Made by a program: the position numbers and the translations under genes. Below the pieces are notes generated by a model, which did no database searches, was not told the origin of the DNA, and was given only the letters and a program-made list of their open reading frames with translations. 64,000 nt of DNA from Pandoraea horticolens (lineage in GTDB: Bacteria; Pseudomonadota; Gammaproteobacteria; Burkholderiales; Burkholderiaceae): assembly GCF_902459555.1 (NCBI RefSeq), contig NZ_CABPSM010000024.1:1-64000 (forward strand). The letters are read 5' to 3'. Within the stretch, counting starts at the first letter, position 1, and every line of letters starts with the position of its first letter. Shown in pieces: positions 30,139 through 64,000 of the stretch.

Positions 30139-30212
30139 GCGGGCTTGGCTGAGTGGTCAGGCACCTGCCTTCCAAGCTGAATACACCGGGTCGATCCCGG
30201 TAGCCCGCTCCA
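30139..30212 (+). tRNA. tRNA-Gly(TCC)-like gene, atypical
   Basis: The acceptor arm GCGGGCT/AGCCCGC pairs over seven bases and is followed by a T discriminator and encoded CCA. The anticodon loop CTTCCAA gives anticodon TCC. The T arm is ACCGG/CCGGT around GTCGATC, lacking the usual first T of TTCRAAT. The anticodon stem CCTGC/GCTGA has two mismatches, and the D arm resembles those of serine and leucine tRNAs. It may be a phage- or island-borne tRNA or a decayed copy. It sits 100-700 bp from prophage and integrase remnants, so it could also have been an attachment site. Confidence 0.6.
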
Positions 30213-59959: not shown

Positions 59960-60607
59960 AATGACGAAATCGATCCGTTGTCCCCGGACGAGCAAGCAGC
60001 CATTCCTGGAAAGCTGACGGGCGGTAACCGGAACCTCGTCCAGTTCGCACTTTGGACCGGAATGCGCACATCGGAATTTATCGCGTTGAACTGGTCGGAC
60101 GTCGATTTCGTTGGGGGATACGTGCGCGTCCGGAGAGCGATGACACGTGAGGCGAAAGGCGTTGCCGAGTTTCCGAAGACATCGGCCGGCCGCCGCGACA
60201 TCCGGCGACTCGAACCCGCGCGCGCCGTCCTGAAAGCGCAGAAAGCCCTCACGTTTCTCACCGAAGAGGACGGGCCGATTTTCAAGGACAAGGCTGGTGA
60301 GCACTTTGCAGGCTCGCATCAAATCTGGCGCCTCTGGCAGTCGGCGCTTAAGCGGGCTGGAGTTCGGTACCGAAACCCATATCAGACCCGGCACACGTAT
60401 GCGTCAATGATGCTCTCGGCCGGCGAACATCCAATGTGGGTTGCTAAGCAGATGGAGCACGCGGACTGGACCATGATCGCGCGAGTCTACGGCAGATGGA
60501 TGCCGACGGCGGACGTTGGGGCCGGAGATAAGGCGGTGGAGAAGTTCGCGCGAAACACTGGCACGGTTGCTGGCATTTTGGCAGAAAAACAGGCAAAAAC
60601 CGGCTAG
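59960..60607 (+). pseudogene. Phage-type tyrosine integrase, N-terminally truncated
   Basis: This is the catalytic domain of a tyrosine recombinase: EIDPLSPDEQAAIPGKL, then FALWTGMRTSEFIALNWSDV with the first Arg, YQTRHTYASMMLSAGEHPMW (HxxR region), EHADWTM, and RVYGRWMP with the Tyr nucleophile. The core-binding N-terminal half (about 150-180 residues) is absent and the DNA upstream is tail-fibre sequence on the other strand. It cannot integrate DNA as it stands. Its 3' region is repeated at 30802-30901. Confidence 0.88.
60356..60455 (+). repeat. Direct repeat, right copy (integrase)
   Basis: Right-hand partner of 30802-30901, 96 of 100 bases identical by my alignment, same orientation, 29,554 bp apart. 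It lies inside the integrase remnant. Confidence 0.9.
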
Positions 60608-61178: not shown

Positions 61179-61337
61179 TTAAAAGTATCATAAAAAATTC
61201 AGAATAAGTTGGCCCTCACCCCATTGATGTCAATGACAAATTTGATGCAATCTTGCGCCGCGAGCAGCCTATTAGTGGAAGAACGAGGATGCTCGTATCA
61301 CCCTCCTAAATTCCGTTTCGTTAAAAGGAGCATCAAG

Positions 61338-61520
61338 ATGACGATTTCCTTGAAAGACGTAAAGATAAGTGATGAATTGACTGCTGGTGAGATCAAGCCT
61401 TTTGTAGCCAACGTGAAATACGCGCAGCGAAATGATCTTGAGATCGAGCCGGTTGTTTCCAACGTCAAATATGCACAGCGTAACGATGAGGAAGTAATGG
61501 CTATCGCCGAGGTTATCTGA
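61338..61520 (+). CDS. Candidate RiPP precursor with two 17-residue repeats
   Basis: A 60-residue peptide. Residues 1-17 (MTISLKDVKISDELTAG) could be a leader. Residues 18-34 (EIKPFVANVKYAQRNDL) and 35-51 (EIEPVVSNVKYAQRNDE) are tandem repeats sharing the invariant NVKYAQRND. Residues 52-60 are a hydrophobic tail. There is no signal peptide. The start is set by an excellent ribosome site, AAAAGGAG, 7 bp before ATG 61338; longer upstream reading is unsupported. A small, strongly translated, repeat-bearing peptide followed by an oxygenase and an exporter is the layout of a ribosomally synthesised and post-translationally modified peptide. Each repeat would be one core or one modification site. 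I know of no characterised product with this core. Asn, Asp, Lys or Tyr in the repeat are possible hydroxylation targets. Confidence 0.65.
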   Translation: MTISLKDVKISDELTAGEIKPFVANVKYAQRNDLEIEPVVSNVKYAQRNDEEVMAIAEVI

Positions 61521-61558
61521 AAGGCGAAGTAATGCGCATGCGTTGTTGAACTCGCGCC

Positions 61559-61587
61559 GTGAGCAAGGGTCTCGGCCTCTTGCTCAC
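61559..61587 (+). promoter_or_regulatory. Intercistronic hairpin between precursor and oxygenase
   Basis: GTGAGCAAG (61559-61567) pairs perfectly with CTTGCTCAC (61579-61587) over nine bases with an 11-base loop. No T-run follows, so it is more likely an mRNA stabiliser or partial terminator than a full one. Such hairpins let precursor exceed enzyme. Confidence 0.65.
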
Positions 61588-61625
61588 CTATCCATGTTTA
61601 TCTTCATCTGAATATTGAGTCAAAT

Positions 61626-62816
61626 ATGGTCGCATTGTTGTCACCGCAATTTGTGGAAGAACTATGGGGTAAGCAAGCGGCAGAGCTAGCCATATCGAAG
61701 ATTCCATTCAACGATAAAGACGTGCTGGGCGCGCTCAAGGAATATGCACTACGCCTGGATGACATTCGCGCCCGAAACTCTCAGTCCGAAGTCATAACCG
61801 CTTTCAATGGAAAGCGCACGTCAGAGGTGCATCCCGATTTTTTTGCGCGGCAGTTCGACGCCACACTTGAGGATTATGTCTCGAGAATCGAATGTCTTGC
61901 CGGTGATGATGAATGGACGGTCATGTACTATGGACTCCATGCAGCAAGCCCCATCATATGGGATGTCGCAAAGACTTTTTCCGACCAGCTCGCCTTGTCA
62001 ATAGGCTATCGTCCTGGCGGGCGCGTCGATGTCGATTGCTTTATTGGTCGATATTCGTCCACTTATATCGGAGTCCATGCGGACCATGCGCATAATTTCG
62101 GGTTCACCCTGCGTGATGGGAAAACGATGTTCACTTGGCCCGGAACCCGGACGGATCTTGTCGGCGTGCGATTTCCTGACTATGAACCGTTCAAGTCCGA
62201 GGGCATTCCGCTTGAGAACAAAACGAATCGAGTGACCTATTTCCCGGGAAACTGGCTGCACGTTGCCGAAACAAAATCCAACGTGTCGGTAAACGTGAAT
62301 ATCGCATTTTGGGAAACCGGTAACGATTCTCAGCAAAACGCGACCTACGTGAAGGGTCTCCTCCAGACACCCAATCGTAGCCGCTATGACGTGCGTTCAT
62401 CAGGTATTGCAAGCCTGAACCCCGATGATGAACTTCTGCTTTCATCGTTGAAGATCTTGCTTGATGGTGCGTCGCTGAAAAAACGAATGATGATTTCTCA
62501 ACTCATTTCGGGCACCAGTAGCCGCTTGAATGTCGGCCGTCCAATCGTCGAAGTTGATGAACTAGACGATGTTATCTCCCTCAACGCCATCAGCACCCTG
62601 CAGTGGATGCCAATATTGCAGGAGGGTGAGGTCCTGGTCGCGGCAAACGGCCACTGTTGCAGCTTCCGTTACAGTCGCGTATTGCACGATTTTCTGGATC
62701 GCCTGTCCGCCGGTCAGCAAGTGAACATTTCAGATCTAACGCGCGGGGATGACAAGCTTCTTAATGAGGATCTGCTGAGTGTAGTAGCGTCGCTGGCGCG
62801 ATGGGGGGCACTTTGA
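61626..62816 (+). CDS. JmjC/cupin-8-type Fe(II)/2-oxoglutarate oxygenase
   Basis: A 396-residue protein with the JmjC-like double-stranded beta-helix of bacterial protein or peptide hydroxylases. The likely metal triad is His151 and Asp153 in GVHADHAHNFGFTL and His212 in FPGNWLHVAETKSNVSVNVN. TMFTWPG and IAFWE flank it as in FIH/ROXA-like enzymes. The C-terminal 140 residues are a separate helical domain with VLVAANGHCCSFRYSRVLHD and VASLARWGAL, reminiscent of the winged helix at the end of ROXA-type hydroxylases, which could bind the leader. In this family 2-oxoglutarate and O2 are used to hydroxylate side chains. The start at 61626 has only a weak ribosome site, which fits lower expression than the precursor. 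The stop shares a base with the exporter start (TGATG). The substrate is inferred to be the peptide encoded upstream. Confidence 0.8.
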   Translation: MVALLSPQFVEELWGKQAAELAISKIPFNDKDVLGALKEYALRLDDIRARNSQSEVITAFNGKRTSEVHPDFFARQFDATLEDYVSRIECLAGDDEWTVMYYGLHAASPIIWDVAKTFSDQLALSIGYRPGGRVDVDCFIGRYSSTYIGVHADHAHNFGFTLRDGKTMFTWPGTRTDLVGVRFPDYEPFKSEGIPLENKTNRVTYFPGNWLHVAETKSNVSVNVNIAFWETGNDSQQNATYVKGLLQTPNRSRYDVRSSGIASLNPDDELLLSSLKILLDGASLKKRMMISQLISGTSSRLNVGRPIVEVDELDDVISLNAISTLQWMPILQEGEVLVAANGHCCSFRYSRVLHDFLDRLSAGQQVNISDLTRGDDKLLNEDLLSVVASLARWGAL

Positions 62817-64000
62817 TGGGCATCAGAGATCGATGGGCGTTCGTTTTTATTTGCGTTTCCCTAACGTTTGGCAGCTTCGCCGATGAAGCAGCTCAAGTGA
62901 CCTTTGCCCTAAGACTAGCTGACCACACATCCTCGGTATCGATTTTGCTCGCCGCAGGTCTCATCGGAGGTATGCTTTCCGGCCCGATTGCGCCCATGAT
63001 CCTCCAGCGAATCGGGCCTCACCAGACGATTCCCGCGGTATTTCTCCTTCAGTCGCTTCTGATCGCGGCCGCGTCCCTAGCCAATCAATTCTGGGGCTAC
63101 GTCGGCGTGTCTATGGCGCTCGGGTCAACAGGGGCTCTTCTGTGGGCGGCAATCATGGTCGCCATTCCAAGCTACACAAACGACGAGCGCTACATTGATC
63201 GTGTAAATAGAATTACGCAGTCGATGCGAAACATGGGTTATGTGGGTGGGCCAGCTCTCGGCGGACTGCTCTACGGCATGGCCGAGCATTCACGAGGACT
63301 GTTGCTGCTGGCCTCTCTAGTGTTGATCGCTGCGCTCGTCACCACGCTATGTTTCAAGGTGCTGGATTCTCGGAATCAAAAATCCGGCCACGCGCCTACG
63401 CAAGACGAACAGAAGGGACGCCTCGACCTGCCAGGTCTCTTTCGCACAGCCGGCGTGATCCGCGCGATCACCCCGCTGTTGATGACGGTCGTGCTTGCAT
63501 CCATGCTCAACGTGCTATTGATATTCCGAATTCGCACCGAGCTGCAATTCAGTACTGAAATCTACGGATTCATCATCAGCGCGTTGAGTTTTGGGCTGAT
63601 CGTCGGTCCCGTGTCCTTTTCCGGAATATTTGCGAGACTTGGTGATGCTGCCGGTGCATCCATTGCTGCCAGTATCATCGGCTTCGGCATTTTATGGCTC
63701 GCCTTGAGCGACGTGGCATGGATCATGACGTGTGCCACATTTCTGATCGGATCGGCAAACGGTATCCAGAATGCGCTCACGGCAAGTTTCATGATGAAAG
63801 CGATAGATCCACAGCGGCGTGTCAACCTGATGCCAGCCTACATATTTTGCATCCAGGCATCAGTATTTCTCGGCTTCCTGTGCGCGGGCATGATCAGTAC
63901 TGCACATGTAAGCACGGCTCTCATGGCTGTTGGAGTCGCCACGGGCATCATTGGCGCCTGCGGTTTCGCATTGAATGTCAAAAACCGTCCAAGCATGGTT
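62816..64000 (+). CDS. MFS transporter, partial at window end
   Basis: An open frame of 395 codons runs to the last base of the window with no stop. It begins MGIRDRWAFVFICVSLTFGS and has at least ten hydrophobic helices: ILLAAGLIGGMLSGPIAPMI, VGVSMALGSTGALLWAAIMV, a central hydrophilic loop (residues about 180-215), then ITPLLMTVVLASMLNVLLIF and GFIISALSFGLIVGP. The pattern is a major facilitator of the drug or metabolite exporter kind. The start overlaps the oxygenase stop by one base, so translation is coupled. Placed after a precursor and a modifying enzyme, it is the probable exporter or self-resistance pump for the modified peptide. Only a few C-terminal residues should lie outside the window. 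Further genes of the cassette, such as a protease, may follow. Confidence 0.8.
   Translation, partial: MGIRDRWAFVFICVSLTFGSFADEAAQVTFALRLADHTSSVSILLAAGLIGGMLSGPIAPMILQRIGPHQTIPAVFLLQSLLIAAASLANQFWGYVGVSMALGSTGALLWAAIMVAIPSYTNDERYIDRVNRITQSMRNMGYVGGPALGGLLYGMAEHSRGLLLLASLVLIAALVTTLCFKVLDSRNQKSGHAPTQDEQKGRLDLPGLFRTAGVIRAITPLLMTVVLASMLNVLLIFRIRTELQFSTEIYGFIISALSFGLIVGPVSFSGIFARLGDAAGASIAASIIGFGILWLALSDVAWIMTCATFLIGSANGIQNALTASFMMKAIDPQRRVNLMPAYIFCIQASVFLGFLCAGMISTAHVSTALMAVGVATGIIGACGFALNVKNRPSMV

What the first reader, a model, noticed from the sequence alone, without database searches (positions are those of the whole stretch)
61338..64000. Candidate undescribed RiPP cassette: repeat peptide, JmjC-type oxygenase, MFS exporter
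Three tightly linked genes: a 60-residue repeat-bearing peptide with a strong ribosome site, a cupin-8/JmjC-type oxygenase with an intact HxD...H triad, and an MFS gene overlapping the oxygenase stop. The layout is precursor-modifier-exporter. Established: JmjC-type Fe(II)/2OG enzymes hydroxylate protein side chains, and RiPP operons often pair a small precursor with a tailoring enzyme and an exporter. Inference: the oxygenase hydroxylates residues in the NVKYAQRND repeats and the product is exported. The system is complete on the visible side and lies outside the decayed island.
Basis: partly seen in the sequence, partly recalled or inferred. Interest (0 to 1): 0.93.

Follow-up and report, generated by a model that had tools for sequence, protein, structure and literature searches.

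The report
KYA-repeat peptide with JmjC-type oxygenase
A six-gene cluster, found in scattered soil, plant-associated and animal-infecting bacteria, encodes a small repeat peptide next to a predicted oxygenase, two predicted methyltransferases and a predicted exporter, and is likely to make a modified peptide that was not found in the literature searched.

Summary
The 60-aa peptide (61338-61520), the oxygenase-like gene (61626-62816) and the MFS gene are real. They are the first half of a six-gene operon whose other genes lie just past the window: a methyltransferase, a 231-aa protein whose model resembles two tandem RiPP recognition elements, and a methyltransferase with winged-helix matches. 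Relatives in Burkholderia, Paraburkholderia, Ralstonia, Bartonella and Streptomyces carry the same peptide with 1 to 5 KYAQ cores, each with a proline six residues before the Lys (61 of 61 cores). Core codons show pS 0.66 against pN 0.014. In the genomes searched the peptide lies only at this locus, intact or decayed, beside the oxygenase gene or its remains. The oxygenase model matches ribosomal oxygenases (MINA53, NO66, YcfD) over its full length, with an intact HxD...H triad. Best reading: a multi-core RiPP pathway in which a ribosomal-oxygenase-type JmjC enzyme likely hydroxylates the core Lys (or Tyr), followed by methylation and export. The chemistry is untested. JmjC hydroxylases in RiPPs are known (BipG, PbsQ); this precursor, gene set and core did not turn up in the literature I could search.

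The parts
61323..61330 (+). ribosome-binding site of the precursor gene (AAAAGGAG)
   Evidence: Read; the 20 bases before the other precursor starts, listed, also hold a purine-rich stretch.
61338..61520 (+). gene A: 60-aa multi-core precursor peptide: leader MTISLKDVKISDELTAGEIKP, two cores, short acidic tail (division into leader, core and tail is inferred)
61410..61436 (+). core repeat 1, NVKYAQRND
   Evidence: nucleotide differences from repeat 2 inside the core are all synonymous.
61461..61487 (+). core repeat 2, NVKYAQRND
61559..61587 (+). hairpin between precursor and oxygenase genes (9-bp perfect stem); role in processing or attenuation is inferred
   Evidence: a GAGCAAG...CTTGCTC hairpin folds in 6 of 7 Burkholderiales intergenic stretches and in the seventh (L007) the stem reads GAACAAG/CTTGTTC; not seen in the 10 Bartonella stretches folded. 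No formal covariation count was made.
61626..62816 (+). gene B: 396-aa JmjC-type (ribosomal-oxygenase-like) Fe(II)/2OG oxygenase candidate with a C-terminal bbb-aaa winged-helix domain (residues 325-392)
62801..64000 (+). gene C: MFS exporter candidate; continues beyond the window to contig position 64015 (404 aa)
   Evidence: Genes D (64018-64896, methyltransferase), E (64903-65598, tandem RRE-like) and F (65585-66829, methyltransferase plus winged helix) follow on the same contig G000:C24 outside the window.

Best explanation
This is a six-gene operon encoding a repeat-bearing precursor peptide whose conserved Lys-Tyr-Ala cores are predicted to be oxidised by the adjacent JmjC-type enzyme, most likely by hydroxylating the core lysine. 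Shown: the precursor family, its variable number of cores, the P-x5-K-Y-A motif, the linkage and co-decay with the oxygenase gene, and the conserved downstream genes. Predicted from fold: gene B is a Fe(II)/2OG oxygenase of ribosomal-oxygenase architecture, and gene E is a partner protein with two recognition-element-like domains. Inferred: E and the winged-helix domain of B hold the leader and the E-[VI]-E-P spacers; B hydroxylates each core, at Lys more likely than Tyr; D and F, the methyltransferases, then methylate the peptide; a host protease trims it; C exports it.
Confidence: 0.6

Rival explanations
1. B cross-links the core instead of hydroxylating it, for example a Lys-Tyr bond within KYA giving a -2 Da product. 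The rest of the pathway is the same.
For: Both Lys and Tyr occur in every core seen, and a 2OG enzyme that forms a Cys-Tyr cross-link in a RiPP has been reported (one sentence in the introduction of PMC12636437; the original paper is not held).
Against: The one reported case needs Cys, which this precursor lacks; characterised RiPP 2OG enzymes are described as largely confined to hydroxylation (PMC12636437 introduction); adjacent Lys and Tyr would make a small ring (inference).
Confidence: 0.17
2. The repeats are a scaffold: the modified Lys-Tyr unit is cut out and exported as a small metabolite, not as a peptide.
For: Few residues per repeat are strictly fixed, repeats are separated by acidic spacers, and core number varies from 1 to 5.
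Against: No excising enzyme was identified in the operon; R-N-D after the core is also well kept in Burkholderiales.
Confidence: 0.13
3. B is a protein oxygenase for a housekeeping target (as YcfD acts on a ribosomal protein) and the peptide is a regulatory leader peptide or unrelated small protein.
For: B has ribosomal-oxygenase architecture, and a hairpin follows the peptide gene.
Against: Sporadic distribution (7 full-length in 398 Burkholderiaceae genomes), strict conservation of the core as amino acids while codons drift, variation in core number, co-decay and an RRE-like partner do not fit a regulatory leader or a housekeeping enzyme.
Confidence: 0.05

Closest known systems
Biphenomycin and biphenomycin-like pathways (BipG, BpmG, PbsQ JmjC or cupin-like hydroxylases)
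   Same: A JmjC or cupin-like 2OG enzyme modifies a basic side chain of a RiPP precursor; the bip operon also has an MFS transporter gene (passages of PMC12707348 and PMC12257519).
   Different: Those clusters have an MNIO, a B12 radical SAM enzyme, an arginase-like enzyme and an F-R-F core, and BipG acts late. Here none of these was recognised in the own operon, the precursor is multi-core, and the JmjC-type enzyme is the only oxidative enzyme recognised.
JmjC-RRE fusion proteins in RiPP-like contexts
   Same: JmjC domain with a bbb-aaa winged-helix domain, noted in PMC12710340 (passage read).
   Different: That passage concerns PF08007-annotated proteins in fish and algae and their bacterial homologues at about 30% identity, and the passage names no precursor. 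Gene B matches no Pfam model at E <= 1.
2OG-dioxygenase macrocyclisation RiPP (Xia et al. 2025, doi 10.1021/jacs.5c07332)
   Same: A 2OG enzyme as a key RiPP enzyme.
   Different: Described as a Cys-Tyr cross-link (sentence in PMC12636437; original not read). The own precursor has no Cys; some relatives do (two of four cores of P. oxyphila, tails of some Bartonella precursors).
Corallotide (graspetide)
   Same: Repeat-bearing precursor whose repeated Lys is hydroxylated by a 2OG enzyme (abstract and passages of PMC13097080).
   Different: Depends on a graspetide synthetase that makes isopeptide bonds; the family matches listed for the six genes include no ATP-grasp family.
Ribosomal oxygenases YcfD, NO66, MINA53
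   Same: Full-length predicted fold; the metal triad is shared (triad of the solved enzymes recalled).
   Different: Those act on ribosomal proteins; this gene is sporadic, in an operon with a repeat peptide, and 9 to 16% identical in the structural alignments.

Membership tests
RiPP biosynthetic gene cluster | Small genetically encoded precursor with leader and core next to modifying genes | tested here: met
RiPP biosynthetic gene cluster | Core under selection as protein sequence, with linked modifying enzyme | tested here: met
   pS 0.663, pN 0.014; co-occurrence.
RiPP biosynthetic gene cluster | Post-translationally modified product | not testable with these tools
   Needs mass spectrometry.
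JmjC-type Fe(II)/2OG oxygenase | JmjC double-stranded beta-helix fold | tested here: met
   Model pLDDT 89.9; Foldseek matches to MINA53, NO66, YcfD and FIH, VIA matches also to JMJD5.
JmjC-type Fe(II)/2OG oxygenase | HxD...H metal triad and a 2OG-binding basic residue | tested here: met
   H151 in 53 of 54 (one gap), D153, K166, H212 in 54 of 54. That K166 is the 2OG-binding Lys, 15 residues after the first His as in MINA53 and NO66, is recalled and comes from no call.
JmjC-type Fe(II)/2OG oxygenase | Recognised by a curated JmjC or cupin profile | tested here: inconclusive
   No Pfam or NCBIfam match at E <= 1; some homologues are labelled JmjC domain-containing by a source.
JmjC-type Fe(II)/2OG oxygenase | Fe(II) and 2OG-dependent oxidation | not testable with these tools
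   Needs an enzyme assay.
RiPP recognition element (gene E; C-terminal domain of B) | bbb-aaa winged-helix domain that binds a leader | tested here: inconclusive
Biphenomycin-type RiPP | MNIO, B12 radical SAM enzyme, arginase and F-R-F core | tested here: not met
   None among the listed family matches of the six genes; no FRF in the precursor. The distant Streptomyces clusters do have a B12-binding radical SAM gene (tested on L057).
2OG Cys-Tyr cross-linked RiPP (Xia et al. 2025) | Cys and Tyr in the core | tested here: not met
   No Cys in the own precursor. The paper itself was not read.
Graspetide | ATP-grasp ligase | tested here: not met
   No such match listed for the six genes (for D one search shows the best 25 of 60).

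The most novel reading that the evidence does not exclude
A new RiPP class whose class-defining enzyme is a ribosomal-oxygenase-type JmjC enzyme: it installs one new oxidative modification at the Lys-Tyr pair of every P-x5-K-Y-A repeat, is steered by a tandem-RRE partner, and the exported product is shared by horizontal transfer among Burkholderia, Ralstonia, Bartonella and Streptomyces.
Probability: 0.4. Interest if true: 0.85.

Novelty: new variant of a known kind. Interest (0 to 1): 0.68.

Why it matters
2OG enzymes in RiPP pathways are described as rare and largely confined to hydroxylation (PMC12636437 introduction). Here a ribosomal-oxygenase-type enzyme is the only oxidative enzyme recognised in a multi-core pathway, with the precursor, a candidate partner and a substrate motif all identified, so enzyme and substrate can be tested in one co-expression. 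The pathway is present in plant-associated, soil and animal-infecting genera and is decaying in steps in several Bartonella, which hints at an ecological role for the product (inference). The P-x5-K-Y-A motif gives a search handle for further members; no Pfam or NCBIfam profile matched the own precursor, B or E.

Tried and rejected
Tried without result: Pfam and NCBIfam for A, B and E; phmmer of B against PDB sequences, only two chance-level hits, and a profile search, whose 14 hits at E 0.2 and above were FIH entries and a ribosomal protein; phmmer of F against PDB, no match at 0.1; D matches only general methyltransferases; plasmid records, one 26% identical partial hit in Nonomuraea; viral contigs, none confirmed. 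Phylum and class samples gave no full-length oxygenase besides the own one (398 and 369 genomes; two weak partial matches in the first). Streptomyces sample of 343: the centre genome itself, two distant relatives and three weak partial matches. The precursors of the Photorhabdus and most distant metagenome homologues (P0048 to P0054) could not be reached.

Rejected: that the peptide ORF is a chance ORF; that this is the Cys-Tyr cross-linking family (no Cys in the own precursor); that it is a biphenomycin or graspetide cluster (enzymes not found). In the two distant Streptomyces loci four pairs of small ORFs were alike; I took the one with the KYA motif upstream of the radical SAM gene and did not test the other three. 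Paper searches (PMC open-licence library): NVKYAQ and KYAQRN give 0 papers; RiPP plus JmjC 93 papers, 40 listed, three on RiPPs opened; RiPP plus JmjC plus precursor peptide plus Burkholderia gives one; Bartonella plus RiPP gives 6, none on this by title and abstract start. Other searches. The library lacks most subscription papers, so absence there is weak. Papers seen: PMC12710340 (passages and two of three parts of the reference list), PMC12707348 and PMC12257519 (passages), PMC13097080 (abstract and passages), PMC12636437 and PMC13060819 (introduction and passages). Xia et al. 2025 was not read; it is known from its title and one sentence in another paper.

Full report
What is there. The peptide gene A (61338-61520) encodes MTISLKDVKISDELTAGEIKPFVANVKYAQRNDLEIEPVVSNVKYAQRNDEEVMAIAEVI. 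The oxygenase-like gene B (61626-62816) follows after 105 nt, and the MFS gene C overlaps its stop. The window ends inside C. The contig goes on to 67245, and three more genes follow in the same direction with almost no space: D (contig 64018-64896, 292 aa, class I methyltransferase, PF13649 2.5e-13), E (64903-65598, 231 aa, no family) and F (65585-66829, 414 aa, PF13578 methyltransferase 1.1e-8 plus PF09860 DUF2087 1.1e-12 and winged-helix matches).

Relatives. A scan of reference genomes with B gave 10 loci in Burkholderia, Paraburkholderia, Bartonella and Streptomyces sp. DH37. A protein search gave 54 homologues, the own one included, among them Ralstonia, Cupriavidus, Pandoraea, Verminephrobacter, Arthrobacter and Photorhabdus. 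In 9 of the 10 loci a peptide of the same family lies just upstream of B. The order A-B-C-D-E-F is kept in L003 and L006 (Burkholderia), L007 (Paraburkholderia oxyphila), L008 (Bartonella doshiae) and L010 (Streptomyces DH37) (L005 and L012 to L019 end too early to show all genes).

The precursor family. Number of cores: 14 precursors with 1, 10 with 2, 6 with 3, one with 4, one with 5 (32 distinct sequences, 61 cores). KYAQ was part of the search in that call, so its invariance there is not independent; the proline six residues before the Lys was not part of the search and is present in 61 of 61. An independent test is the set of 13 Bartonella loci found by B alone: 13 of 13 have a KYAQ peptide upstream, while the residues before it vary widely. 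Two distant Streptomyces loci found by B alone (B 29 and 30% identical) have a small peptide ending in TPKRANSKYALLQDGADN or TPKRVNSKYALLQDGTDV, again P-x5-K-Y-A. These two loci are 80 to 83% alike in DNA, so they count nearly as one, and the peptide was picked by its motif and position among four pairs of similar small ORFs. Among 19 Burkholderiales cores the codons differ at synonymous sites (pS 0.663) but hardly at others (pN 0.014); in the leader the figures are 0.339 and 0.191. This is what a conserved multi-core precursor would show.

Co-occurrence. Burkholderiaceae: full-length B in 7 of 398 genomes, own included (three further weak partial matches were not counted); the peptide lies upstream in 6 of those 7. 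A separate peptide search of 349 genomes found it in 5, all with B; of the other two with B, G169 has no peptide upstream, and G394 has one upstream but is not in that answer, perhaps not drawn. Bartonella: of 61 genomes 13 have full-length B, one of them with a stop inside, and 5 have only pieces of it. A peptide query matched 15 of 61: 11 of the 13 with B, and 4 of the 48 others (Fisher p = 2e-7). The two B genomes it missed have divergent KYAQ peptides. The four others are broken copies of the same locus: G794 has B in pieces, G844 and G814 keep about the last 31 codons of B, and G804 has no B match while C remains; the peptides of G804 and G814 contain a stop. In G845, where B carries stops, the peptide ends before YAQ. 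Against: Burkholderia territorii LMG 28158 has B to F over their length but no peptide at the locus and none found elsewhere in its genome.

Mechanism. I commit to a multi-core RiPP pathway. Steps shown: precursor, cores, linkage, selection, conserved gene set. Predicted: B is a 2OG oxygenase; E binds the precursor. Inferred: B hydroxylates each core. Lys is favoured over Tyr because the nearest RiPP precedents, BipG and PbsQ, act on the basic side chain of ornithine and corallotide's enzyme acts on Lys; Gln is less likely since it is Leu in the distant clusters. D is missing in Bartonella L009, a remnant in L011, and unseen in both distant Streptomyces clusters, which have a B12-binding radical SAM gene in its stead, so D and that enzyme may be alternative alkylation steps. 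F is kept in those two clusters (E 3e-62 and 2e-63); E is only a weak match there (0.21 and 0.010). The leader is probably removed by a host protease, as no protease was recognised.

Spread. In a tree of 28 of the 54 oxygenases, Ralstonia, Pandoraea, Caballeronia and Burkholderia copies join on short branches; the operon has 53.5% G+C against 60.2% for the window, and a phage-type integrase fragment lies just upstream (59978-60607, PF00589 3.3e-16). This fits horizontal transfer (inference).

Novelty. The motif is in no paper of the library. JmjC hydroxylases in RiPPs and JmjC-RRE fusions are known, and one 2OG enzyme is reported to make a Cys-Tyr cross-link, so this is a new variant of a known kind and not a new kind of system. 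If B turns out to do a new reaction at Lys-Tyr it would define a new RiPP class.

Noticed in passing
window 59978-60607 (+): Phage-type integrase fragment (PF00589) 0.7 kb upstream of the precursor; the operon may have arrived with a mobile element.
   Followed up: partly
window 61559-61587: Hairpin between precursor and oxygenase genes, present in all 7 Burkholderiales stretches folded, without a T-run in the own copy; possibly sets a high precursor to enzyme ratio.
   Followed up: partly
L057 and L058 (unnamed Streptomyces genomes): Distant clusters with a peptide bearing P-x5-K-Y-A-L-L, a B12-binding radical SAM gene (Pfam-tested in L057), a 29 to 30% identical oxygenase, MFS and F-like genes and a weak E-like match, but no D seen.
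   Followed up: partly
L062, L063, L064, L065 and L012 (Bartonella): Stepwise decay of the locus: the oxygenase gene is lost or broken while exporter and peptide remnants persist.
   Followed up: partly
L004 7980-8020 (Burkholderia territorii): Precursor gene missing from the locus although B to F are present over their length; no other copy found in that genome.
   Followed up: yes
L009 7700-7932 (Bartonella massiliensis): The ATG of the precursor leader is out of frame with the core, so this copy may be inactive or start elsewhere.
   Followed up: no
   Followed up: no
window 30139-30212 (+): tRNA-Gly, the only tRNA found in the window.
   Followed up: no
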